Source of the DNA: Gonatopus flavifemur
Taxonomy: Eukaryota; Arthropoda; Insecta; Hymenoptera; Dryinidae
NCBI GenBank assembly: GCA_018340375.1
Contig: JAFFJZ010000002.1
Span: forward strand, 50,054,001 to 50,118,000
Direction of reading: 5' to 3'
Length of the DNA stretch: 64,000 bases
The number at the start of each line of letters is the position of its first letter. Position 1 is the first letter of the stretch. The notes below the pieces were generated by a model that did no database searches, was not told the origin of the DNA, and worked only from the letters and a program-made list of their open reading frames with translations. The position numbers were made by a program, and so were the translations under genes. Shown in pieces: positions 1,347 to 63,583 of this stretch.

Positions 1347-4300
1347 TAATATAAGACGACAAAGTTACACACTAATTCGATAATAATTTCCAATACCTCG
1401 TGGCAACGTTGCTCGAAAAGTCATCTCGTATCGCAATCAAGGGAAATTCATCTCGTTTTCAGATCGTATCACGTTGCAAAGAATAATTCTATTCTCCGCT
1501 GACAAAAGGTTTTCTTCCCTCGCGCGAAACTCATGATTATGATGAGAAGGAATTTATCAAAGGAGTAATTTGTCAGATCCTCCGAATCGATATTCCGGCT
1601 TTTTCCCATCTCTTGCACAATATTTTTCTTCCTCCGTGTTCCTTCAAAACGAGACAGTAGACGACTAATGGTCGTTGGCCGAACCCGCAGTTACGACCAC
1701 ACGCAAGGAATTTCAAATTTGTCGGACTGAATCCTCCGGTATGATTCTTAGGAAGAAATGCGCGCGGAATAACAACGCTTTTTAACAGTCAAAGCCAAAA
1801 GGTGACGTGAAATCAAAAGAGAGAACGACAGAAGCAGCAGAAGAAGAAGAAAAAGGAGGGATGTCCTGTACGTATCCTGCATACGGGAAGAGATACCTCC
1901 TCGTTTTTGTTGTCCTTTTTTTGACATATGACCATCGTAAACGGACTCTAGAGATTAACTTCGTCAGGTGAGACGATATTTCAGAACGCTCTGATGTCTC
2001 CATTCTATCAGTTCACAAATTTTTTTTCCCTCTGTCCCGATTGAAATAGTTAGAATGGTTTATAAGAATGTGGGATTCGATCGAGAGGAACGGTGAATTT
2101 CCCTCCATTGCCACGTATTACCACGTGTACGTAACACGTATTATCCAGGTACTTGCAGTACAGTGAGAAAAAAATGATGACCCATTGATTGTTTTCAATT
2201 CGCACGTTAGCTTTCTCGAAACACTTGGATAATAGTTCGGTTGAAATAAAGAAGAGATCTGACAAACAATCTTGGATTATGAAAAAAAAACTTTGGTGTG
2301 AAAATTCACACAGTTCGCGTTTATGCTAGGTCTAAAATTACAATAGAAGCAAGTATAACGAGTGCTAACGTCATCGTACGAATCTTACTGCATACCAACC
2401 GGTGGTTATAATCAATCAAAATAATGAAAAGGATGATCAACGGGGGAGCGATATTTAATTCTGATTGCATTTCACGGTAGAAATCACAAATCTCTTGTTA
2501 CAAATTTCATCCTTCCTATGGTATTCAGAAATCAAGAAGACAAAGAGAAATGTCTCAAGTTCAGTTCTGATCTAACAGTATTATTCTGTGTTGCAAGATG
2601 TGTTATTACATTGATTATGTTAAGCAGGTCTGAGTTATTTGAAAGTCGATGGAAAGTTGGTCATTTGGTATGGTACGACGAATCAAGCTCATTGATGGTT
2701 ATCTGCGAAATTATGGAAGGGAATGAAAATAAAAAAGTGAGAACGTAAAGTGAGGGGATATAGGAATCAACGAAGATATACGTTCGATGTTGCAGAAATA
2801 AATTAATTTCCATACCAAGTGGAAGTTTCTTGGGTGTTTTTTTGCTCATCAAGATTACTTTCATTGGGATTTCCATTCAAATTATACGAGTGCGTGATGT
2901 ATTCGTGATATAAAGATGCATTTACCTGTGCACCCGAAAAAATGAATAATTCGATACGTTGAGTATACGGCGAGTCGCGAAGGTGAATTTTGTTTTTCTG
3001 GGAGGATTTTGTATTCCGAATTCTGAATAATCTTGTCGACAACTGTATGTATTCCCTTCATCTTCACATCTATTACTGTCGATTGATTAGATGTAATACC
3101 CAAGTAGTGATTACTCCAACCACTTTATCGATCCCCACAACCAATAGTACCGATGGAATGTTATGGGATTGAGTGTATATAGAATAAGTATCGGATCATT
3201 TTCAACGATAATTACTGTCCTCGAATGCTTAAATTGAGACATCTCTGTTTATAAATTCCGATGATTTTTACAAGGTTGATAAAAGAACAAGCACACGCTG
3301 ATGATAGAGACACAACCGATTTAGAGTAAATTTATGTATTTGAATTGGCGAAGAGTGGATTTTCCGTAGCTATGGGATAACCAATAATGGAGTATACAGT
3401 ATATACCGGTGGGATGAAATCAATGAAATCACCAATAACTGTTGGGAGAAGTCAAGAACAGTGGAATCGAGCACGTACACCTACGTACAAGTGGTATACG
3501 TATGAACGTAACGTCATAAAGAGGAAAGACTGATCCGATATGTAGGTGTGGATTATGACGAGAGAAATGGCATAATATGCAAGAGCGGTTTCAAGCCTCG
3601 ATACAATTACCATGAATTTTATGGAATATTATTATATTTATTTTATTCAGTCTCGCATAAATTCGATCAACTGAATAATGAGGGATGCTTTTGGGATAGT
3701 TTGAACATTTGAGATTGAGTTTTAGTTATATCATTAACTTGATAGCCTTCCATTATGCCTGATCAAATAATTACGATTATAATAATAATCAAAGCGCGCA
3801 ATGTATTAATAACTGTGTTCAAAGCGTGTGGAGAGTTCAAATCATCCCTCGGTTATGGCGTATTAGATTCCAACGACAAAGCGAGGTTTCGCTATTATCG
3901 TTCCTATGAAATACAAGTCAAATATCTCTGAATATTTTTGTTGTACAGAGAAACCGACTGAACAGCCGAATGATTTATGGAGCTAATTTTTACAGGCTTA
4001 TCGATCCAAAAATTCAACGAAAACTTTTGTCTCAATCTCAATTTATTCAAACAACATGAGAAGGGATGAACAGTTGTGAACTTTTATTCTATATTTCAAT
4101 ATATTTTTCACAACAAAGGTATTTTATTTTTGAGAAACAAAGTCCATGTAAAATAAACAGTTCCTGAAGCATTTGAAACGATACCAAATCATCAAGCCCT
4201 AAATTCTCAATCGACTTGCTTCTTCTCTTCGAGAAAGAAAAAAGCTGCACGCATCTCGATACTTCACCTTTATATTTTTCACTGTACGCAATGTTTCAAT

Positions 4301-19323: not shown

Positions 19324-19647
19324 AACATACTAAATTTCAATTGCCGCAGCAAGGTGTCCTCCTCTCAGTGGACCGAGTATTTAAAATGACATGTGACTGC
19401 AAAATTTTGTCCCCTCCATTATTGAAATAAATCTGGTTTCTCCAGTTGCAACGTGATGAAAATCTTCAGAAGTTCATAAGCATGTACTCCGGATGACGGA
19501 ACTTATTATTGTATCGAATGAATATTTAGTAACGTAGTTTTAATTTAGCGGATAATATCCCATCGTGAGATTTGAAATATCAAATATTTTATTTAGAAAT
19601 GATATCAGTCACATCATACGTCATGTAAAAAATATAAGAATACTTAC

Positions 19648-20048
19648 CGGAAATTTGCTACTGTGAGTTTGCAAGTTGGTGGATTGTTGCTGCTGTTGCT
19701 GTTGTTGCTGTTGCTGTTGCTGTTGTTGTTGTTGTTGTTGTTGTTGTTGCTGTTGCTGCTGTTGTTGTTGAGTTTGACTCGAACTTTGTTCGTCACCGTA
19801 TAAAGGTGGCATCCTGTATCCTGGCGCTATAGCCTGGCCAGAATGATTCCACAACTGAAGCTGATTTTCGTCCTCTATTGCAAGGCTTCCTCTACTTTTA
19901 GAGCCGGAAGTCGATTGAAGACTGACCAAAAATTCATTCGCCGTCTGTCGCCAATTATCCTCTTGGTGGTGTAAATTCTCGTTATATTGATTTTTCTGAT
20001 GGTTCGGCAGTAGCTTTTGAGGTGGTGATGGTTTGAAACCCTCTTCAT
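19648..20048 (-). CDS. Polyglutamine-rich exon, unrecognised host gene
   Basis: A 401-nt minus-strand exon. Acceptor TTCTGTTGCATTTCAG precedes it; donor is CCG then GTAAGT, close to consensus. Read after two bases that complete a split codon, it gives EEGFKPSPPQKLLPNHQ, then NWRQTANEFLVSLQS, GSKSRGSLAIEDENQLQL and PGYRMPPLYGDEQ. A run of about 28-30 Gln follows, encoded by mixed CAA and CAG, then STNLQTHSSKFP. The composition (Ser, Gln, Asn, Pro) points to a disordered regulatory region; no catalytic or DNA-binding motif is visible. The entry phase fits the exon at 29131-29214 (G plus AT makes Asp). It exits in phase 0, fitting 4636-4713. The exon has no in-frame stop and is the most secure host coding sequence in the window. 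Gene identity is unknown to me. Confidence 0.72.
19683..19771 (-). repeat. (CAA/CAG)n trinucleotide repeat in exon
   Basis: About 88 bp of CAA and CAG codons on the minus strand giving about 29 consecutive Gln. Mixed codons suggest a tract under protein-level constraint rather than a pure expanding repeat; length polymorphism is likely. Confidence 0.85.
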
Positions 20049-20936
20049 CTGAAATGCAACAGAAAAATTTGAATCATTTCAACTCTTTGAATAAATTTTG
20101 AAAATTCTCGTGAAAATCTTTTAATAGATTGGAAAAAACAAACTTTCCCAAGTTCAGTTCTCTAAATTTGAATCAGTGCAATCTTACTATTTCTGCGGCT
20201 AAAAGTCGACCACTCAATGAAATCAGTGAGATATCAGAGAATAGTCACTGATTTTGCAGTTGGAAACAGTTAATATTCACTAATTTCTAGTGGTCAGCTT
20301 TCCACTACAATTTCATTGTTCTAAATTTGCAGGTGAGATGTTTAGGATTGATGATAGTTAATCTGACCCTTATCTTGCTAGATTGTATTATTTTTCGAAA
20401 AGAACATACATAATTGGTGCAAATAAACAGGTCTAGAAATAAGTAACAGAAGTTGAGCATAACCTGTTCAAAATCCGGTGAAAAATGATTGTCAGGTTTT
20501 GAACGGTTTTTGTCCCTAGCAATCCAATTGAAAACTGACAAAATTCCTCTTCGATATTATCCAGAATTGATGAAATTAATAGTAAATTTTGAAATGATAT
20601 TTTTTTGAATTCACAAACTGTGATATCCAGTCGAAAACTGACAAAAATGCACCTGCCAGGTTTTGATAGAATGTTGCAATTTGGTAATTCACAAAAAAGA
20701 AGGGAAAGAAGTTTGTCAACGAAAAACAAAAAGCCTTACAAGTGATTTTTGGCCCGTTCAGGCAGGCATTTTTTCAGCAGGGGTCAGATTTCATGAGAAG
20801 TCTTTTGATAATCAGAACGTCCCATGGTAGATAAAAAAGTGTTCAAAATATATTATGCACCACAAACATTTGGAGAATATGCTTCCTGGTAAATTCCGTC
20901 CAACTGAAATTCGATACAAAATAACTGATGATATTT
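20049..20936. other. No gene; one small hairpin
   Basis: Intron-like. A weak inverted pair lies at about 20207-20305 (GACCACTCAATGAAATCAGTG against CACTAATTTCTAGTGGTC). Minus-strand frames 20305-20541 and 20433-20729 show no recognisable protein. Confidence 0.4.
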
Positions 20937-21352
20937 GATAATTAAGATGTGTGTAGAGTAGTGTTCGGAGCGGCGCCATCAATTAACGGAGAAACAATCC
21001 AATTAGCCGAGCAGTGCTTTTTTATTGCAAAAGCCAACGTTTGGCCCAGATACTGAGCATTTTCAAGGCAAAAAATTACAACGTAGAGATGAAGTGGAAG
21101 ACTCCATCATTGAACTCACAAAAAAATTGGATGGGGTCCGATTGGGGGGCCGCTCCGAGCACTATATACTCTACACATATCCTAATTATTGAAGCACCCC
21201 ATCCAATTTTTTTGTGGGTTCAATGATGGAGTCTCCCACTTCATCTCTACGTTGTAATTTTTTGCCTTGAAAATGCCCAGTATCTGGGCCAAACGTTGGC
21301 TTTTGCAATAAAAAAGCACTGCTCGGCTAATTGGATTGTTTCTCCGTTAACT
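20937..21352. repeat. Double inverted repeat in order A-B-A'-B'
   Basis: Block B (about 20978-21143) reappears almost perfectly inverted at about 21188-21350; roughly 160 bp with only a few differences. Block A (about 20937-20977, with TGTGTAGAGTA and CGGAGCGGC) reappears inverted between them (about 21147-21192, GCCGCTCCGAGCAC...TACTCTACACAT). The direct repeat AACTGATGATATT flanks the structure near 20925 and 21352. No coding function. Confidence 0.8.
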
Positions 21353-22270
21353 GATGATATTCGGTTGTACTTCGGTAAATTCTCGGTTTTTAGTAATTTC
21401 ATGGTTGGTTTTTGACGATTTTCAACTGGAAGATAACAAAATCCAACAGGAAAATTGATTATTCTGAAATCATTGAGGGTCCTCGGGAACCAAAACGCGC
21501 AAAATCACGGCCACATTTCTCAAACGTTCAGAAAACTCTTGGTGCTGTCTGGGGAGGGTACTTTTTCCTTTACCTGATTTTAGTATGTTTTTCTCAAAAT
21601 TATAAAAGGGAAAAATCTTTGACACATATGTTTACGTGATTAAGTTTCGTGGCACAAAAGAAACGAAAGAAGTATGAGTTCCCTGTTGGTTAACCTTTTG
21701 AAGTGTATACATTTTCTCTGTCGGGGAATTTTAATAACAAGTTAGCATTCCTGTGAAAACGAAATCATCCGAACCCATCGATAGTGCAAATCTCTACTTG
21801 AAAATGGTGCAAACTTATTCAAAATTTGCACTTTTATCATTGGAAAAATTTCATTTTAATAAGAACCAATCCCCGTGTAGAGATTTTCCCGAGCGTCCTG
21901 TATTGAATACAGGCCCTGTACGGGCATATGTTAGGTATCCCAACATAGAGCTACCTAGTCTTAGCCAGCAAAGGGCCTACCCGGATTGCTATTATTAGCC
22001 CCGACTTTTCTAAGCTTGGGTCACCCGTATACAGCCCATGTGGGGGAAAGTTGAGCTACCACTGTGTTCCCCTGTTATGAGAATTTTGGTGCGCCTAACT
22101 ACAGCCCGTGTAGAGCCTACTCGGGTTGCTATTATTAGCCGGCAAGTTTTTCCTGATGGGACAAAACTATCTTTTTTTCTTGTCATTCCTGTGAGTGTAA
22201 TAATTTCCAAAGATTACTGCTGAAAAATATACAAAGTTGATATTGTTTTTATTTTATAAACTAGTAAGGT
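21353..22270. other. No gene; GGCCTA/AGCCCA repeat words
   Basis: From about 21880 to 22210 repeated words of the type GGGCCTACCCGG, ACAGCCCATGTGGG and TACTCGGGTTGCTATTATTAG occur, the last twice (near 21976 and 22121). Looks like a degraded GGCCC-type element. Confidence 0.45.
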
Positions 22271-36770: not shown

Positions 36771-36840
36771 CACTGTTAGAAAAATCTGCCAAAAACTTTA
36801 TAAGAATATCATCAAGTTTTTTACATAAACAGTTTATTAA

Positions 36841-37076
36841 AGAGACTGGAGCATGGGGAAGTGGGGGAGGGGAAAATTTCAACCCCTAAATGTGAACAAA
36901 TTTCACAATTTAATTTTTTAGCCTTCACAAATCATTGGGAAATTCAAAGTACGTGGCAGTGCGCAATCCGAAGTACGTAATTCATCATCATTCACTTCAA
37001 ATTTGTATCAATTACGTGTCTTTTCACGCAAAATTTGACATTTTCCCCTCCCCCACTTTCCCATGCTCTAGTTCCC
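36841..37076. repeat. TTAA-type element 1
   Basis: Left AGAGACTGGAGCATGGGGAA and right (reverse complement) GGGAACTAGAGCATGGGAAA, each continuing into GTGGGGGAGGGGAAAA. TTAA stands at 36837-36840 and TTAG at 37077-37080. 236 bp, non-coding. Confidence 0.7.
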
Positions 37077-37080
37077 TTAG

Positions 37081-37503
37081 AGGGCATCCATTAATTACGT
37101 GAGGTGTTCAAGGAGAGGAGAGGATCAAGATGGATCTTGCCAAATCTCACATGGGGGTGAGGGAGACTCTGGGGGAATGAAACATAATTTTTTTCTAGCA
37201 GAAAACGGTGTAAAATCGTGTGAAATTATTTTGAAAAATTTCATCACATCACTGTGATTTTAAATTACGGTAATATTCTCAAATGCTAGTCTTTGCTAGT
37301 CTTGAATAAAAGTAATAGAGAACAATTTTTGTTTTTTTTAATAATCCAACGCATTCTCACCTGAAACACAAATTTTGAAAAATCTCACGTGAGATTAGGG
37401 GAGAGGGGAGGGAATTGCGGAAAATATTACGAAATAACACCAGGGGGGGGAAGGGGGGTCAGAAAATCCTCAAAAATGCCTCACGGAATTAATGGACGCC
37501 CCC
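37081..37503. repeat. TTAA-type element 2
   Basis: Left AGGGCATCCATTAATTACGT and right (reverse complement) GGGGGCGTCCATTAATTCCG, both followed by GAGG. Flanked by TTAG (37077-37080) and TTAA (37504-37507). The GGGGGCGTCCATTAATT-type end is common among animal DNA elements; interior has GGGGGAAGGGGGG stretches and no open frame. Confidence 0.7.
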
Positions 37504-37941
37504 TTAAATTTCATAATAAAATATTGAATTTAATAATATAATTCTTGATGTTAAAAATTTTTTTCTTAATGTGGAGACTTCTCTTTTTAATTTTAATAAC
37601 ATATTCGTGAAATTCGATAAACAATTGTTACATTTCGGGAAGAAATTTTGAACTTCTATCATTAATATTGAATTCAAAGGCACTCGAGCATCAGGAGAAG
37701 CGGGTAAACTTTTGCATGAATCACTTGATAAATTGAAAATTGAAATCAATAATGATTGTGTAAATACCTGAAATTGCGCTCCAAATACAAAATTCTGATT
37801 TCTTCATGGTTCGCAGATATTAGAAAATGGAATTAAAAAAATTTCTGACAGATAGAGGTTATCTTGAAATCCTTTCATACTCGCCAAAAAATCAATCAAA
37901 GACTGAAATTTATATCTAGAGTCTAATCCTAAATTTTATTA

Positions 37942-38996
37942 TTGGGTAAGAGAATAAGTTTCCGCCCTCTTGGAAAAAGTGTTGCTGCTGATACTATTTC
38001 TGAGTTCACTCAAGTGCTATACTTGTGATTTGGAAATGTATATGTAAGGTGTCAATTGAGGTAGTTGACATTTGTTACAAGCGTAAACATCATTTTTTAT
38101 CTGGTGTCAAAAATGACAACGTTTGTCCCGACAAAACAGCATTTGCGGGAAGTTATGCTTCATTATTTTATTTCGAAGAAAAGTGCCGCTGAAACGTATC
38201 GTGTACTGTCCAATATTTACGGTGATCAAGCTCCGTCTAATACAACTTGTAAAGAGTGGTTTCGACGATTCCAAAGTGGCGATTTCGACGTGAGTGATAA
38301 AGAATGCGGAGGGGCACCGAAAAAATTCGAAGATGTGGAACAATTATTGAATGAAGATGCATGTCGAACCCTAGATGAGTTGTCTGAAGAGTTGGGTGTT
38401 GACAGGTCGACCGTCGGTAAACGCTTGCACAAGATGGGAATGGTCCAAAAAGCAGGTAATTGGGTGCCGCATCGACTAAAGCAGAGAGATATCGAGGGAC
38501 GTTTGGTAACGTGCGAGATGCTTCTTGAACGGCAGAAAAGAAAGAGTTTTCTGCATCGTATTGTCACTGGCGATGAAAAATAGATCTATTACGATAATCC
38601 TAAGCGTCGAAAAAGTTGGGGGCTGCCAGGTGTACCAGGTCCATCGACACCGAAGACAAATAGATCAGAAAGGTGTCATTTATTATGAACTTCTGAAACC
38701 GTCAGAAACAATCACTGGCGATCGTTACAGACTCCAGCTGATACGTTTGAATCGAGCTCTAAAAGAAAAACGACCGGAATGGGACGGTAGACATGATAAA
38801 CTTATCTTGCTGCATGATAATGCTAGGCCACATGTTGCTCAACCTGTTAAAAAATATTTGGAAGGAGTGAATTGGGAAATCTTGCCGCACCCGCCGTATT
38901 CCCCAGACATTGCGCCTTCGGATTATGTAATAATCCATTGTTCGAATAAAAGTCAACTTTTCTTGAAAAAGGGCGGAAACTTATTCCCATACCCAA
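37942..38996 (+). mobile_element. Mariner (Mos1-like), internally deleted
   Basis: 1055 bp between TA pairs (37940-37941, 38997-38998). Ends TTGGGTAAGAGAATAAGTTT and (reverse complement, right) TTGGGTATGGGAATAAGTTT, continuing CCGCCCT. About 250 bp shorter than an intact mariner because of deletions in the transposase. Confidence 0.9.
38113..38926 (+). pseudogene. Mos1-like mariner transposase, broken
   Basis: Starts MTTFVPTKQHLREVMLHY at 38113, typical of the mauritiana/Mos1-like group, with TCKEWFRRFQSGDFDV and the second DNA-binding part ELGVDRSTVGKRLHKMGM. Then WVPHRLKQRDIE and HRIVTGDEK, where the expected Trp is a TAG stop (38581). After YYDNPKRRKSWGLPG a deletion removes the usual IHGxKxMLCIWWD block and shifts frame; coding resumes DQKGVIYYELLKP. 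The second and third catalytic Asp are in LLHDNARPHVA and YSPDIAPSDY. Everything C-terminal of APSDY is deleted and the sequence jumps to the 3' terminal region. Clearly inactive. Confidence 0.9.
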
Positions 38997-38998
38997 TA

Positions 38999-39492
38999 TT
39001 ATTCACTCAAAATTTCCGTTGAATGCATAATTTATGAAAAAAATTTGACTCGATTCTTTCAGACCTTGACAATATGGAACTATGATATTTCATCAATAAT
39101 TTCGTATTAAATTAAAAAATTTTTCCAACAGTGTAATTATAAAAATCAAATTTGTATTGGAGGTTTGTGATTGTTATTCAAATTTCCCGGAGCTAGTGGG
39201 ATTGAATTTCGATTCCTACATGGATCACTGAAAAATCTATGGAAGGTAAATCTTGTGATGTCAGATCCCTAGTAGAAATGCTCCAGGCATAAACTCTCTA
39301 TTACATAGGAAGAAAAGTTACATTATAGATTGCTATTTCGCTGGCACTTACGGGACAGACTTACCAATATAATATTATCTCGTCAGACACTTCTTAAAAA
39401 CTATTATACTTGAAAATACAATATGGAAGATTTCTCACATTAGGTACTATCGAATATATGAATTTTTAGGAAGTGTCTGATTAAATGATATC
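38999..39492. repeat. CCCTAGTAG fragment and small hairpin
   Basis: 39270 has TCCCTAGTAGAAATGCTCC, the terminus of the family at 42734. 39379-39482 is a hairpin (TCAGACACTTCTTAAAAA against TTTTTAGGAAGTGTCTGA) whose right edge is interrupted by the next hAT-like element. Confidence 0.5.
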
Positions 39493-42154: not shown

Positions 42155-42501
42155 CAAGGAGGAAAAAATTTGCTGATGCAGCAAATCGAGGTATTATATA
42201 CAGAATAAGGAATCTTTTTGCTAGCCTGGCTGAAAATTCACTGCCGCAGCTAATTGCATTGTTGAGAGAGCAACATGATTAACTAAAGTAGCAAATTTTC
42301 CGCTACACCAGCGAAATTTTTAGTCTTGTAGACAGAATAGCAAACATTTTTCACTGTCACAGCTAAAACACCGCTGGCATAGCTAACACAATTGCTGTGA
42401 TGGCAAATAGATTGCTGTCATAGCAAGAAATTTACTGTCCCAACACAAGATTTCCAGCACAATTAGGTTTCGCTGTGATAGCAAATTCTTTTTTCTCCGT
42501 G
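42155..42501. repeat. Type-B hairpin element
   Basis: 347 bp, TA on both sides (42153-42154, 42502-42503). Left CAAGGAGGAAAAAATTTGC (mutated CACGG), right (reverse complement) CACGGAGAAAAAAGAATTTG. Interior TTGCTG/CAGC words; shares ATCGAGGTATTATATA with other copies. Confidence 0.85.
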
Positions 42502-42803
42502 TAAAATTTGTATCAAAAATTTCGGAGAATATAATTTCGCATCAAAGTTGTTGAAAAATTTGTGTTCCAAAGTGCTAAAAAGCCATTTATTAAAAATCGG
42601 AACTTCTTAAAGTATACACGGAGGAAAAAGAAATTCGCTGTGACAGGGAAATCTAATTTTGTGGGTCTCTTCAGCAATGTTGTTAGCTTAGACAGCGATT
42701 TTTTTACTGTGGCAGCAAAAAATGTTTGCTTTCCCCTAGTAGAAATCAGTCTGGTTGTTCTTCAGGTCATCACTAGACCTTGCAATGCTCTCACAAGTAT
42801 CTA

Positions 42804-43282
42804 CACGGAAAAAACTTTAGGACTGTGAGAGTTCGAAATGTATGTAGGTAACTCTAACAGTTCAATGATTTTTGGTTATGCAAGTTCAAAATTCGAATCT
42901 TCAAAGTCCAAAACGACATTGAACTCGTATAGTCACACAATCCACGCCATTAAATCCAATAGTTTGGCGTGAAAGAGTGCGGCGCTGCGTCGAACTGCGA
43001 GAGCTAAAGCGATCGGACTCTCAGAGTCCGAGATTTCGTACTCTGAGAGTCCGATCGTTTGAGTTCTCGCAGTTTGACGCAGCGCCGCACTCTCTCACGC
43101 CAAACTATTGGATCTAATGGCCCGCATCGTGTGACTATAAGGGTTCGATGTTGTTCTGAACTTTTACAATTCAATTTTTTAACCGAGTCAAGTCAAAAAG
43201 TTGCACTGTTACTGTTCGAGTTACATTTGAACTCTTTCAGTACAAACAGTTGTATTGATTCAGTCCTAAAATTTTTTCCGTG
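42804..43282. repeat. CAC-ended long hairpin
   Basis: Ends CACGGAAAAAACTTTAGGAC and (reverse complement, right) CACGGAAAAAATTTTAGGAC; TA on both sides (42802-42803, 43283-43284). Arms of about 230 bp pair through GTTTGGCGTGA and GCGGCGCTGCGTC to a centre near 43030 (CTCTCAGAGTCCGAG). The innermost 60 bp are nearly perfect. Confidence 0.9.
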
Positions 43283-43284
43283 TA

Positions 43285-43532
43285 CACTGTAAAAAATATA
43301 CTTCCTAAACTGCCAAAGAAGTTTGGCAGTTTTTCACACAAACTTTTTTTGTAAATTACCAAACAAAAGTTTGTAAACATTCAAAAAATTTTGTGATTTC
43401 ACGAAGATTTTTGAGAATTCACAAACTTTTGTTCGGCAATTTACAAAAAAGGTTCGGAAATTATTTTTCCAAACCAAGTTTGTAAATTTCCAAGCATTTT
43501 TGTTTGGAATTCAACAAATTTTACTTACAGTG
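43285..43532. repeat. CAC-ended hairpin with AAACTTTTGT words
   Basis: Ends CACTGTAAAAAATATAC and (reverse complement, right) CACTGTAAGTAAAATTTG. Shares its left TA with the preceding element and has TA at 43533-43534. The interior repeats TTTGTAAATT, CAAACTT and AAGTTTG in both orientations. Confidence 0.85.
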
Positions 43533-43872
43533 TAGTGACTACGTTTGATGGCCTGGAGACTGGCTTAAGTTATTTCTAGTAGGGCTCCAACAAATGTCCA
43601 TATTATATACTGGGTGATTCGGAATTGCCGTACACTTTTTTGAGAGCAGATTCTTGATGAAATTCTGAAACGATTTTGATGCGGAATATTTTGATCTGAC
43701 CCTTAGATTCGGAAATATGCACTGTTAGAAAAATCTGCCTGAAACTTCATAAAAATATTATGAAGTTTTTTACATAATCATTTTATTAAATTTCATAATA
43801 AAATATTGAATTCAATAATATAATTCTTAATGTTGAGAATTTTTTTCTCAATGTTGATAATTTTGTTCTTAA

Positions 43873-44326
43873 CCCTTAGCTGCCACACTTCGCCAGTGTA
43901 ACATAGCTGCCACACTGGGGTCGATGATGACCCTAACTGTAAATGTATACCAAAGCCAAGCTATGCGTACATGAGCCTTGGAAAAATTTTAGAGAGTACT
44001 AAAACTATTCCCATTTCCAGTCAAATAATTTACCTAAAGGAAAATTGATTTCGAAGTTGTGCAAAAATTATGTGTATAGCACACATGGCATCGCTTCTTT
44101 TCATCGATCAATGGGTATATTCTCGGTTCTAGATGAAATTATCACTGTATCATGGAAAAAAATTATATGAAACATGGATAATCATGTCACGCTAGGGTGG
44201 AGTGAGGTGAAGAAACTCTAAAGTGGCACCAGATTGCGCGAAGAGTTCGAATTATTGAGTTTCTTGATGGTAATTCAAGATTGAATCATGTTGGGGTCAG
44301 TCTGACCCCAGTGTAGCAGCTAAGGG
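43873..44326. mobile_element. piggyBac-like (TTAA) non-autonomous element
   Basis: Flanked by TTAA (43869-43872, 44327-44330). Left CCCTTAGCTGCCACACTT, right (reverse complement) CCCTTAGCTGCTACACTGG. TTAA duplication with CCC ends is typical of piggyBac. The left end has a second AGCTGCCACACTGGGGTC copy and the right a GGGGTCAGTCTGACCCC palindrome. No transposase frame; 454 bp. Confidence 0.88.
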
Positions 44327-44438
44327 TTAATTGTGATAATATATTTGTGAAATTTAATAAACAATTATTACATTCCAGGAAGAAATTTTGAAATGTCATC
44401 ATCAATATCAAATTTAAGAACTATTATTGAATTCAATA

Positions 44439-44570
44439 TAGGGCTGGGGCTATAATCTGATTCAATGTGATTTTATATATAATTTGTATCAAGTTTTTAT
44501 ACAAATTTATAGAATCTTGATACAAATTATATATAAAATCACATTGAATCAGATTATAGCCCCAGCCCTA
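44439..44570. mobile_element. hAT-like perfect-hairpin MITE, 8-bp TSD
   Basis: 132 bp. Arms 44439-44493 and 44516-44570 are perfectly complementary over 55 bp and begin TAGGGCTGGGGCTATAATC. ATTCAATA is duplicated on both sides (44431-44438, 44571-44578). TAGGG-type ends and 8-bp duplication indicate hAT. Confidence 0.92.
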
Positions 44571-45528
44571 ATTCAATATGAAAATATGATATTTGATAAA
44601 GAATTTTGTATTGAATTTAAGAACTTTTTTAACAGTGTGAGCATTTTTTGATTATTTGAAAAAACCAAATATCTTGGAAGGACCATATCTTTGACATTTT
44701 AATCCAATATCATTCTCTAAGGCAGATCACGGAGTATTCCTGGAAAAAAATACAACCAATTTAGCGTTTTTCCTTGTAGAGTTATGGCGGTTGTGGAATT
44801 TTTGCATTCCAGCCAATCAGAATTCAACAACTTTGAATCGCTATAACTCCACAACGAAGGAAGCTAAATTAGTTTTATTTTTTTCCAGGAATACCCCGTG
44901 ATCTGCCTTACAGGATGATATTGGATTCGAATATCAAAGATATGATCCTTCCGAAATATTTGGATTTTTCAAAAACTCAAAAAATGCTTATATCTCCGGA
45001 TCCTCAGAATCAGATCTGAATATTCCTGATCAAAATCGTTTCAGAATTTCATTAAGAATCTGCTCTCAAAAAAGTGTACGGCAATTTCGAATCACCCAGT
45101 ATAGAATAGCGAACAAATTTTGCTGGAGAAAACAACATTCTTGGCTTGCACAACACAAAAGTCGCTGTCCTAGCTAACAAGATTGCCGTGATAGCAAATA
45201 GATTGATGTCACAGCAAAAAATTTTCTCTTCGTGTAAAAGTCGAAATACACGATAAAATCAGTTGAAGTTGAACAATTTTTCACGCTTCATGTACCGCGT
45301 GGAAATGCTACACACCGTGCAGTTGTATGCAAAACAAATAAAATTTTTCATAAAAATTCTTTCGTCGTTCGTCGCTTCTTATGATGTAGTCGGTAAATAG
45401 ATATTTATACCTCATTGCTATAACAGGTGAAGGAAAACAGTAAAAACAAACTCCCTAATCGGAAGCGCGCAATGAAAAGAATCCACCGTACGCGTATATA
45501 TCAGGACGATGTTAATTGGAATACTTAC

Positions 45529-47030: not shown

Positions 47031-47076
47031 AAATAGAGAAAAGAAATTTGCAAACGCAGCCAATCGAAGTATTATA

Positions 47077-47988
47077 CGAGGCGCGTTCATAAAGTAAGGG
47101 CCGTTTGGTCACAGAAAGAAACATACTCGTAAGAAACAAATTTTATTGCCATATTTAGTTAGGTACAAACTTACTTTACTTCTCTACATAATCGCCGTTC
47201 ACTTGTAAGCATTTTTCGTACCGCTGCACCAGCTTCTTTAACCCGTCTGCATAGAAGCTTGCCGCCTGAGAGTTGAATCAGTTGACAACGGCGTTTTTGA
47301 GTCCCTCTTGGGTTTCAAAACGTTGTCCACCGAGCCACTGTTTACACACAAGAAGAGGAAGTAGTCGCTAGTTGCAAGGTCAGGACTGTACCGTGGGTGG
47401 TCAAAAAGTTTCTAACGACAATCTTGAATTTTCTTCTTGGTTTTGGCAGCAGTGTGAGGACGCGCGTTATCGTGGAGGAGGATTATGCCAGATGACAGTT
47501 TCCCGCGGCATTTGTTTTGGATCACACGTCTCAATTTCTTGAGCGTTTCGCAGTACACGTCAGCTGTAGTTGTTGTCCCACGTTCCATGAAATCAACCAA
47601 AAAAACACCGTCTCTGTCCCAAAAAACTGTAGCCATCAATTTTCGACTCGTGTACGGAGTTTGCTTAAACTTTTTCGGTTTTGGTGAAGTTGAGTGTTGC
47701 CACTGCATCGATTGCAGTTTTGTTTCACAACACAGTGGCTCGGTGGACAAGGTTTTAAAACCGAAGAGGGACTCAAAAACGCCGTTGTCAACTGGTTCAA
47801 CTCTCAGGCGGCAAGCTTTTATGAAGAGGGGTTAAAGAAGCTGGTGCAGCGGTACGAAAAATGCTTAGGAGTGAACGGTAGAGGAGTGAAGTAAGTTTGT
47901 ACCTAACTAAATATGACAATAAACCTTGTTTCTTACGAGTATATTTCTTTCTGTGACCAAACGGCCCTTACTTTATGAACGCGCCTGG
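47077..47988 (-). mobile_element. Rearranged mariner: two inverted 3' ends
   Basis: 912 bp between TA pairs (47075-47076, 47989-47990). The left arm 47077-47341 and right arm 47732-47988 are inverted copies, roughly 90% alike by eye. Both carry the 3' end of the transposase gene (minus: VQRYEKCLQVNGDYVEK; plus: VQRYEKCLGVNGRGVK). Terminal repeats start CGAGGCGCGTTCATAAAG and CCAGGCGCGTTCATAAAG. The 5' half of a normal mariner, with its DNA-binding domain and first catalytic Asp, is replaced by the second 3' end. Confidence 0.92.
47176..47735 (-). pseudogene. Mariner transposase C-terminal half
   Basis: Minus-strand reading starts within ETKLQSMQWQHSTSPKPKKF near the right-arm junction, then LMATVFWDRDGVFLVDFMER, LHDNARPHTAAKTKK, DHPRYSPDLATSDYFLF and the C-terminus NGDYVEK with a TAA at 47176-47178. 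A frameshift or stop separates the HDN part from the SDY part near 47412. The catalytic Asp of HDN and SDY are present; the first Asp and all DNA-binding regions are absent. The group differs from Mos1-like copies (ends in YVEK, not YFE). Confidence 0.85.
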
Positions 47989-48147
47989 TATGTAGAATAG
48001 CAAGAGTTATCAGCGAAAGATTTCCTGTTCTAGTGAATTGTCACAATCTTTCAGCAATCCAGTTGGTTGTAGCAGCAAATTTTGCTGCTAGGGCTGCTCT
48101 GTGTACAATACCTCGATTCGCTGTGTTAACAAATTCTCGCTCCTCGT

Positions 48148-50675: not shown

Positions 50676-51201
50676 CACGCACAGAAAAAATAATTTAGCT
50701 GCAGCAGCTAAGTAGCTAGCACGGACACGGATAGCCATTAAATTAGCTCCTGCAGCTGAATTTTAGCTGTTACGGCAAAAAAATTTGCATTTGCAGTCAA
50801 TTTATTTGCGGTAACAACTAAAATTTAGCTGCAGGAGCTAATTTGATGGCTGTCCGTGTCCGTGCTAGCTACTTAGCTGCTGCAGCTAAATTATTTTTTC
50901 CGTGCGGAAAGACCGGGTCTGTTAATATTTAGAAAAATGACTGTCAATTTAGGGAAAACGAGGATCGCTCAAAAATATTCGTACTGAGTCCACTGAAAAT
51001 TCGTAGTCGATGTATCAACAATTGATAGTTTCACTGTGAAAAATACCAATGAGACTATCAGCTGTCAATATTTTGACTACGGATTTTTGATAGACTCACT
51101 ACAAATATTTTCCAGCGATCCTCTTTTCCCCTAAATTGACAGTCATTTCTCTAAACGTTGATAAATTCTTTCTCAATATTAATAGACTCGGTCTTTCTGT
51201 G
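50676..51201. repeat. CAC-ended hairpin with a guest in its fourth base
   Basis: Left end CACG is followed at once by a guest, then CGGAAAGACCGGGTC; the right end reads (reverse complement) CACAGAAAGACCGAGTC. TG flanks both sides (50674-50675, 51202-51203). Arms pair through AATGACTGTCAATTTAGGG and AGGATCGCT. About 300 bp without the guest. Confidence 0.87.
50680..50904. repeat. CAC-ended hairpin, AGCTGCAGCAGCT words
   Basis: Ends CACAGAAAAAATAATTTAGC and (reverse complement, right) CACGGAAAAAATAATTTAGC. CG is duplicated on both sides (50678-50679, 50905-50906). Arms of about 95 bp pair almost perfectly (GCTAGCACGGACACGGATAG). Confidence 0.92.
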
Positions 51202-62404: not shown

Positions 62405-63583
62405 CACAGTGCTACACTGGTCAGGCACTTTTCGAATGACCTAGTGCACGTTGTTGGTCTGGTCGAATATAACACAAAACCATGTTTGAAAAATTTTTTA
62501 CATCCTCAAATTTTCAAGTTATGGTCAAAAAACTGATTTTTCGGGATTTTGTACATTTGAAAATTTCTGCACGGAGAAAAAGGAATTCGCCGTGGCAGCG
62601 AAATCTACTTTTGCTGGGTTCCTTTTGCCAGAGCAGCAAATTTTTAGCTGTGGCAGCAAAAAAATTGCTGTCGTAGCTAACACGATTGCTGTTATAGCAA
62701 ATTTTTAACTAGATCAGTAAAAAATTTTGCTATTCTATATATAATACCTCGATTTGCTGCGTCAGCAAATTTTTTCTCTCCGTGTGACTCGGCCAGTTTT
62801 GGACCAATTTCAAAATTCCAAAAGGGGTTCTGAAAGGGGAATGTTGGCATTTTCGAGACATATATATGTTTTTGAGTATTGAATAGAACTTAGTGGAAAT
62901 TTTTCCTCAAGAATTTGAAATTTTCATCTTTTTTTTTCATTTTTTCTATTTCAAAAGCACTTTCGCGACTATACTTCAAGAACCAATGGTTTATCATGTA
63001 TAGTATTGGAGTGTGTTCAATTCGGTGTGGAATGAGTCGTTGTTGATCGAAATCGATCAAGAATATTGTCGGAATTATACAATTTTTTCCAAAAAAGGAA
63101 ATTTTGTTCTCATACGAAAATTGATGTGAAGTTCAATTAATAATATTCTATGCATCATGAGACGTATTATGGTATCGAATATGATGTTGACTTGTTCTAT
63201 CATCAGGCTGAGAAAAGAATCTAGGCCAAATAGGTAGAACTCAGGCTAATATAATTATAATATTATAATAATAATTTAAAGTTCTTGAAGAAAAATTTCC
63301 ACTAAGTATCCATTCAATACTCAAAATCATATATATGTCTCGAATGTGCCAACATTCCGCTTTCAGAACCCGTTTGGAATTCTGGAATTGGTCAAAAAAT
63401 GGCCGAATTAGAAATTTTCAAACGTACAAAATCCCCAAAAATCAGTTTTTTGACCATAACTCGAAAATTTGAGGGTGTAAAAAATTTTTCAAACATGGTT
63501 TTGTGTTGTATTCGACCAGACCAACAACCTACACTAGGTCATTTGAGAAGTGTCTTTGGTTTTTTCTTTTTTGTAGCACTGTG
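62405..63583. mobile_element. Long palindromic element hosting a type-B copy
   Basis: Ends CACAGTGCTACACTGG and (reverse complement, right) CACAGTGCTACAAAAAAG. Arms of nearly 500 bp pair strongly, for example GTTGTTGGTCTGGTCGAATA, AACACAAAACCATG and TCGAGACATATATATG. The left arm is interrupted by 62570-62784; the right arm keeps the uninterrupted version near 63408-63411. Confidence 0.85.
62570..62784. repeat. Type-B hairpin element
   Basis: 215 bp, ends CACGGAGAAAAAGGAATTCG and (reverse complement, right) CACGGAGAGAAAAAATTTGC; TG on both sides (62568-62569, 62785-62786). Interior GCAGCAAAAAAATTGCTG, GCTAACACGATTGCTG and TATATATAATACCTCGA are the reverse complement of the copy at 27190. Confidence 0.9.

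What the first reader, a model, noticed from the sequence alone, without database searches (positions are those of the whole stretch)
42617..45234. Four-level Russian-doll insertion
Type-B element contains the CTGGGTGATTCG element (43610-45099), which contains a CAC-ended element (43720-44637), which contains a TTAA element (43873-44326) and a perfect-hairpin hAT MITE (44439-44570). A separate CCCTAGTAG element with two side-by-side CAC hairpins sits in the same outer host. Each layer has its own end repeats and target duplication (2-bp TA, TATA, TG, TTAA, 8-bp ATTCAATA), so the order of insertion can be read directly.
Basis: seen in the sequence. Interest (0 to 1): 0.85.

Follow-up and report, generated by a model that had tools for sequence, protein, structure and literature searches.

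The report
Transposons nested four levels deep
Small jumping-DNA elements have inserted into one another four levels deep, and copies of the host elements elsewhere in the same genome show the landing sites still empty, so the stack is real but of an ordinary kind.

Summary
The window lies in an unnamed 636-Mb assembly. Every layer recurs there as a separate short element, and each guest site is empty in other copies of its host.

Main chain: Type-B (42617-45234) > CTGGG palindrome (43610-45099) > CAC element (43720-44637) > piggyBac-like TTAA MITE (43873-44326) and hAT-like hairpin MITE (44439-44570). Side chain: Type-B > CCCTAGTAG MITE (42734-43584) > hairpins hp1 (42804-43282) and hp2 (43285-43532). 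Divergence falls with depth: nearest other copy 86-88% alike for Type-B, 91% CTGGG, 98% CAC, 99% TTAA, 100% hAT.

Corrections: the CTGGG duplication is TA, not TATA; the hairpin is 97% paired, not perfect; siblings in one host cannot be ordered by nesting. The CAC guest sits at TG, while six of six fetched copies sit at TA. Two loci show related families nested the other way round, so their activity overlapped.

A side result: the listed hAT-like copies cluster strongly (44 pairs under 1 Mb, against 1-8 in five other families), which suggests short-range spread.

Verdict: real, well explained, a new example of a known kind.

The parts
42617..45234 (.). Type-B element, outermost host; CACGGAG...GTG ends, TA on both sides (42615-42616, 45235-45236)
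   Evidence: Flanks are inverted repeats of each other; 39 other copies at 81-88% for its right part; both guest sites empty in 6 of 6 fetched copies
42734..43584 (.). CCCTAGTAG MITE, about 120 bp without its guests, inserted in Type-B
   Evidence: 8 other copies, all 9 candidates scored; alignment of copies
42804..43282 (.). hp1, CAC-ended hairpin element inside the CCCTAGTAG MITE; TA at 42802-42803 and 43283-43284
   Evidence: 31 other places at 81-93%, some partial; site empty in CCCTAGTAG copies
43285..43532 (.). hp2, CAC-ended hairpin element abutting hp1; TA at 43283-43284 and 43533-43534
   Evidence: 9 other places at 97-99%; stand-alone copies in L005 and L030
43610..45099 (.). CTGGG palindromic element, 570 bp without its guests, inserted in Type-B at a TATATA stretch (TA duplication)
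   Evidence: 39 other copies at 84-91%; 28 of 39 span 545-590 bp; self-complementarity restored by removing the guest
43720..44637 (.). CAC element, 320 bp without its guests, inserted in one arm of the CTGGG palindrome; TG at 43718-43719 and 44638-44639
   Evidence: 39 other copies at 97-98% of its first 149 bp; 6 of 6 fetched copies 320-323 bp with TA on both sides
43869..44330 (.). piggyBac-like MITE 43873-44326 with its TTAA on both sides, inserted in the CAC element
   Evidence: 39 other places at 97-99%; TTAA on both sides in 26 of 27 fetched copies
44431..44578 (.). hAT-like hairpin MITE 44439-44570 with its 8-bp ATTCAATA duplication, inserted in the CAC element
   Evidence: 8 other copies identical over 132 bp; 8-bp duplication with at most 1 mismatch in 28 of 32 copies, window's own included

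Best explanation
A stack of successive cut-and-paste insertions of non-autonomous DNA transposons (MITEs). A Type-B element came first. A CTGGG palindrome entered it at a TATATA stretch and a CCCTAGTAG MITE entered it at another place. A CAC element entered one arm of the CTGGG palindrome at a TG. A piggyBac-like MITE (TTAA) and a hAT-like MITE (8-bp duplication) then entered the CAC element. Two CAC-ended hairpins entered the CCCTAGTAG MITE at one TA, the second at the duplication left by the first. Shown: separate identity of the layers, borders, duplications (except that of CCCTAGTAG) and empty sites. Inferred: that transposases acting in trans moved each family, and that hp2 came after hp1 and the hAT-like MITE after the TTAA one.
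For: Every layer has other copies in the genome. Empty sites: CTGGG 28 of 39 copies with joined span 545-590 bp against 570 predicted, and relatives in L053 and L047 run ungapped across the CAC site; CAC 6 of 6 fetched, plus the in-window copy 36771-39134 at the TTAA site and L038 at both sites; Type-B 6 of 6 fetched at both sites; CCCTAGTAG 7 of 8. Removing 920 bp from the CTGGG element restores its symmetry best exactly at 43718-43720, i.e. guest plus 2-bp duplication: score 782, intact 470, 57 coarse positions mean 445, 50 shuffles at most 72. Divergence order agrees with nesting order.
Against: The CCCTAGTAG duplication is unclear. The CAC guest sits at TG/TG although 6 of 6 fetched copies have TA/TA. 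11 of 39 CTGGG copies have a shorter joined span (385-544 bp), and the joining of overlapping pieces cannot show copies with large inserts (at least C359:8195350 and C1:40601547 lie in separate pieces), so 28 of 39 is a count of intact copies, not proof that no other copy carries a guest. The in-window Type-B copies align to the host only piecewise. No transposase source was identified.
Confidence: 0.96

Rival explanations
1. The inner pieces are normal internal parts of larger composite elements that move as one unit.
For: All layers lie within one 2.6-kb stretch, and most are of similar build (CAC ends, TA duplications).
Against: Copies without guests at the predicted lengths: CTGGG 28 of 39, CAC 6 of 6 fetched, Type-B 6 of 6 fetched, CCCTAGTAG 7 of 8. 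In each search the listed copies other than the window's covered single layers; lists are capped at 40 scored candidates.
Confidence: 0.02
2. Part of the outer structure (Type-B flanks, CCCTAGTAG element, hp1/hp2) came about by rearrangement or by elements landing side by side, not by clean insertion into one Type-B element.
For: In-window Type-B copies match the two flanks only piecewise and in opposite directions; CCCTAGTAG shows no clear target duplication; hp1 and hp2 abut; another Type-B piece (42301-42508) lies just upstream.
Against: Six genomic Type-B copies align with the joined flanks in the same order across both sites. The two flanks are inverted repeats of each other. The hp1/hp2 joint is exactly one TA, as expected from insertion into a target duplication, and hp2 copies also abut at C99:2618592-2619093.
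Confidence: 0.05
3. Assembly artefact: unrelated repeat copies wrongly joined.
For: The locus is repeat-rich and several guests have near-identical copies elsewhere.
Against: Every joint has the matching duplication or a symmetry break at the expected base, and the whole fits in 2.6 kb, shorter than a usual long read (inference; reads not seen).
Confidence: 0.01

Closest known systems
Nested-transposon chronology: TinT (PMC3014933, passages read) and interruption analysis (PMC2517846, listing with start of abstract)
   Same: Relative age is read from which element interrupts which; here the divergence order agrees with it.
   Different: Those use genome-wide counts; this is one locus with each joint checked against empty copies.
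Nested repeats in a 600-kb region of the fly Calliphora vicina (PMC3630058, passages read): 11 of 322 repeats nested, and a palindromic unclassified repeat of about 465 bp
   Same: Nested DNA elements in an animal genome and palindromic elements of unknown class.
   Different: The passages seen do not describe a four-level stack of MITEs; no sequence comparison with those elements was made.
hAT MITEs such as mar of Drosophila (PMC3517528, listing with start of abstract, not used; seen)
   Same: Short non-coding element with TIRs; 8-bp duplication as in the hAT superfamily (recalled).
   Different: The element here is almost wholly a hairpin (63-nt arms, 6-nt loop); no sequence comparison with mar was made.
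piggyBac superfamily (features recalled)
   Same: TTAA duplication, ends starting CCC.
   Different: Non-coding 454-bp element; no transposase source identified; one fetched copy (L016) has ATAA instead of TTAA.

Membership tests
MITE (non-autonomous DNA transposon) | Short, with terminal inverted repeats and many copies | tested here: met
   TIRs; at least 8 to 39 other copies of each layer
MITE (non-autonomous DNA transposon) | No coding capacity | tested here: met
   No stop-to-stop frame of 150 aa or more overlaps 42617-45234; the elements without guests are 120-570 bp except none longer
piggyBac superfamily (TTAA element) | TTAA target duplication | tested here: met
   26 of 27 fetched copies, chosen as the closest; the other has ATAA on both sides
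piggyBac superfamily (TTAA element) | Shares ends with a piggyBac transposase gene | not tested
   Genome search for PF13843 did not complete
hAT superfamily (hairpin element) | 8-bp target duplication | tested here: met
   28 of 32 copies with at most 1 mismatch, window's own included
hAT superfamily (hairpin element) | Shares ends with a hAT transposase gene | not tested
   No search made
Tc1/mariner-like (CAC-ended, Type-B and CTGGG elements) | TA target duplication | tested here: inconclusive
   CAC: TA/TA in 6 of 6 fetched copies but TG/TG in the window copy; Type-B copy 62570: TG/TG; CTGGG: TA/TA in 6 of 8 sampled copies, TA/TG in 1, left end lost in 1
Tc1/mariner-like (CAC-ended, Type-B and CTGGG elements) | Ends shared with a DDE transposase of that superfamily | not tested
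   No autonomous partner sought for these families; so not filed under Tc1/mariner

The most novel reading that the evidence does not exclude
The innermost hairpin MITE is a very recent element that spreads mostly over short chromosomal distances, with this locus inside one of its neighbourhoods: 10 of 41 listed places (window's own included) lie at C110:49.5-53.9 Mb, and nearby copies are more alike than distant ones. With the reciprocal nesting of the older families, the genome would be a readable record of overlapping bursts with different jump ranges.
Probability: 0.55. Interest if true: 0.45.

Novelty: new member of a known kind. Interest (0 to 1): 0.33.

Why it matters
The locus is a clean worked example of transposon stratigraphy: seven guests in one host, with empty landing sites found in other copies in the same genome and a divergence order that agrees with the nesting order. 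The clustering of the hAT-like MITE suggests that jump distance can be measured from one assembly, with other families of the same genome as controls. Nesting as such is ordinary in repeat-rich genomes.

Tried and rejected
Composite-element reading: rejected by guest-free copies. TATA as the CTGGG duplication: rejected by base count against uninterrupted Type-B copies and by the flanks of 8 sampled copies. A 3-bp duplication for CCCTAGTAG (TTC/CTC in the window, TAC/TAC in L082, TAC/CAC in L087, read by eye; L081, L083, L084, L085, L086 and L088 gave no clear match) was left open. Exact-pattern scans of viral contigs with CTGGG and TTAA ends found nothing. Rfam and tRNA scans of the window were empty. 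Paper searches for end sequences gave nothing or, judging by titles in the listing, only papers on other subjects. The random sample of 20 x 10 kb (20 of 60 regions drawn) gave useful single loci (L030, L038, L039, L044, L046, L047) but no copy numbers; in it Type-B, hp1 and CCCTAGTAG had no match at E 1e-4. Scripts only waited. An autonomous partner for the TTAA MITE (family PF13843) was asked for eight times without an answer.

Rows dropped before a count: in the 41 hAT-like places I left out two partial copies (C110:51667659 and C110:53227571) and the reverse-strand rows of the palindromes; both partial copies lie beside full ones and would add close pairs. In the hp1 list separate pieces of one copy were counted once. 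In one search separate pieces of CTGGG copies were not joined.

Full report
Setting. The window is bases 50054001-50118000 of contig C110 in an unnamed 636-Mb assembly of 402 contigs. It holds mariner-type transposase fragments, so it comes from a eukaryote, probably an arthropod (inference; organism not tested).

The layers. Each layer was sought in the whole genome; each search scores at most 40 candidates, so the counts are lower bounds except for CCCTAGTAG (9 of 9 candidates scored). The TTAA element (43869-44330) matched 39 other places at 97-99% (40 of 5547 candidates scored). Of 27 fetched copies, chosen as the closest, 26 have TTAA on both sides with different flanks and one (L016) has ATAA on both sides. 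The hAT-like hairpin has 8 other copies identical over 132 bp (40 of 751 scored); 28 of 32 copies (window's own included) have an 8-bp duplication with at most one mismatch, each at a different target sequence. The CTGGG element has 39 other copies at 84-91% (40 of 1677), CAC 39 at 97-98% over 149 bp (40 of 2377), Type-B 39 at 81-88% over its right part (40 of 1892), CCCTAGTAG 8 at 80-91%, hp1 31 at 81-93%, some partial, and hp2 9 at 97-99% (40 of 1613 scored for the two together).

Empty sites. (a) Guests of CAC: the in-window CAC copy at 36771-39134 runs through the TTAA site; L038 is empty at both sites; six fetched copies, of 39 listed, are 320 bp (one 323), against 320 predicted, with both sites empty and TA on both sides in 6 of 6. 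(b) CAC in CTGGG: without the guest the element aligns to its own reverse complement at 84% over 581 columns. A scan over removed stretches peaks exactly at 43718-43720 with 920 bp, that is 918 bp of guest plus a 2-bp duplication (score 782; intact 470; 57 coarse positions mean 445; 50 shuffles at most 72). In the genome 28 of 39 copies have a joined span of 545-590 bp; 11 are shorter, 385-544 bp; the longest is 583 bp. The joining of overlapping matches cannot show a copy split by a large insert, and at least two of the short ones (C359:8195350, C1:40601547) have a further piece nearby. Relatives in L053 and L047 run without a gap across the site. (c) Guests of Type-B: 6 of 6 fetched copies, of 39 listed, are continuous across both sites. 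(d) hp1 and hp2 in CCCTAGTAG: 7 of 8 copies are contiguous across the site (L086 with a 10-base gap beside it); L087 is deleted there.

Target duplications. For CTGGG the duplication is TA: uninterrupted Type-B copies B1 and L108 have 18 bases where the window has 9+11, and of 8 sampled CTGGG copies 6 show TA/TA, one TA/TG and one has lost its left end. The TG of the CAC guest is unusual for its family (6 of 6 fetched copies at TA), but the Type-B copy at 62570 also has TG on both sides. hp1 and hp2 stand as TA-hp1-TA-hp2-TA, as expected if one inserted into the duplication left by the other. The CCCTAGTAG duplication is unresolved.

Order and age. Nesting fixes Type-B, then CTGGG, then CAC, then TTAA and hAT-like; and Type-B, then CCCTAGTAG, then hp1/hp2. 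Nearest other copies agree: Type-B 86% over about 120 bp (88% over 105 bp), CTGGG 91%, CAC 98% over 149 bp, TTAA 99%, hAT-like 100%; CCCTAGTAG 80-91%, hp1 93%, hp2 99%. The window's CAC copy differs from a 7-row consensus at 13 of 320 sites and its TTAA copy from a 28-row consensus at 4 of 462. Siblings are not ordered by nesting; divergence suggests hAT-like after TTAA and hp2 after hp1. These are relative figures from the closest copies, not clock dates.

Reciprocal nesting. In L038 a CAC copy is interrupted by a palindrome with TA-CAGGGTGTCCC ends whose core is about 66% like CTGGG over 199 bases, the reverse of the window's order. At C2:76711 (L093) the left end of a CTGGG copy gives way to a Type-B-like CTCTCCGTG-TA end. 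These are one locus each. In the window, Type-B copy 62570-62787 interrupts another palindrome (62423-63555), and a mariner ORF (38065-39022) lies inside the CAC copy 36771-39134. So the older families were active in overlapping periods, and this nest is not the only one in the window.

Short-range spread of the hAT-like MITE. Among 41 listed places (window's own included; two partial copies left out) there are 44 pairs closer than 1 Mb, against a mean of 2.57 and a maximum of 10 in 500 simulations of uniform placement. TTAA has 8 among 40 places, CAC 3 of 40, CTGGG 3 of 40, Type-B 7 of 40, hp1 1 of 32. Among 32 fetched copies, pairs closer than 5 Mb (n=69) are on average 97.1% alike, others (n=427) 95.6%; 15 of 5000 permutations reach this. 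Caveats: the places are those most like the window copy; uniform placement ignores contig ends and insertion preferences; some pairs are copies beside or inside one another (for example L052, inserted in another copy of itself).

Comparison with print. Nesting as a clock is established: TinT (PMC3014933, passages) and interruption analysis (PMC2517846, listing). In a fly region 11 of 322 repeats were nested (PMC3630058, passages). 'Local hopping' is a known term (PMC2874221 and others, listing only). The end sequences were not found in the library, and one search gave only papers on other subjects by title. The finding is therefore a well-resolved example of a known kind, of modest interest.

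Noticed in passing
44439-44570; C110:49.5-53.9 Mb: The hAT-like hairpin MITE has 8 identical other copies and its listed places cluster strongly (44 pairs under 1 Mb among 41 places; 1-8 in five other families), which suggests short-range spread.
   Followed up: partly
L038 (C370:29297519-29307518), about 2710-3829: A CAC copy interrupted by a palindrome related to the CTGGG element: nesting in the reverse order.
   Followed up: partly
L093 (C2:76711-76751): The left end of a CTGGG copy gives way to a Type-B-like end, again the reverse order.
   Followed up: no
62423-63555: A palindromic element interrupted by a Type-B copy (62570-62787) that has TG on both sides.
   Followed up: partly
36771-39134: A second CAC copy, broken by an unidentified stretch (about 36842-37503) and by a region with a mariner ORF (38065-39022).
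   Followed up: partly
L016 (C342:142563-143623): A copy of the TTAA MITE with ATAA on both sides instead of TTAA.
   Followed up: no
L052 (near C110:51667526): A hAT-like MITE inserted in another copy of itself.
   Followed up: no
C99:2618592-2619093: Two hp2 copies side by side, like hp1 and hp2 in the window.
   Followed up: no
C349:34131033-34131875: A piece 79% like the CAC element lies about 250 bases from a TTAA MITE copy, possibly another TTAA-in-CAC nest.
   Followed up: no
42301-42508: Another Type-B piece ends about 100 bases before the nest.
   Followed up: partly
770-1263; 20977-21356; 47074-47991; 50678-50906; 50928-51155: Further palindromic or long-TIR elements in the window.
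   Followed up: no
19621-20073: An open frame on the minus strand with a long glutamine run; no Pfam match.
   Followed up: no
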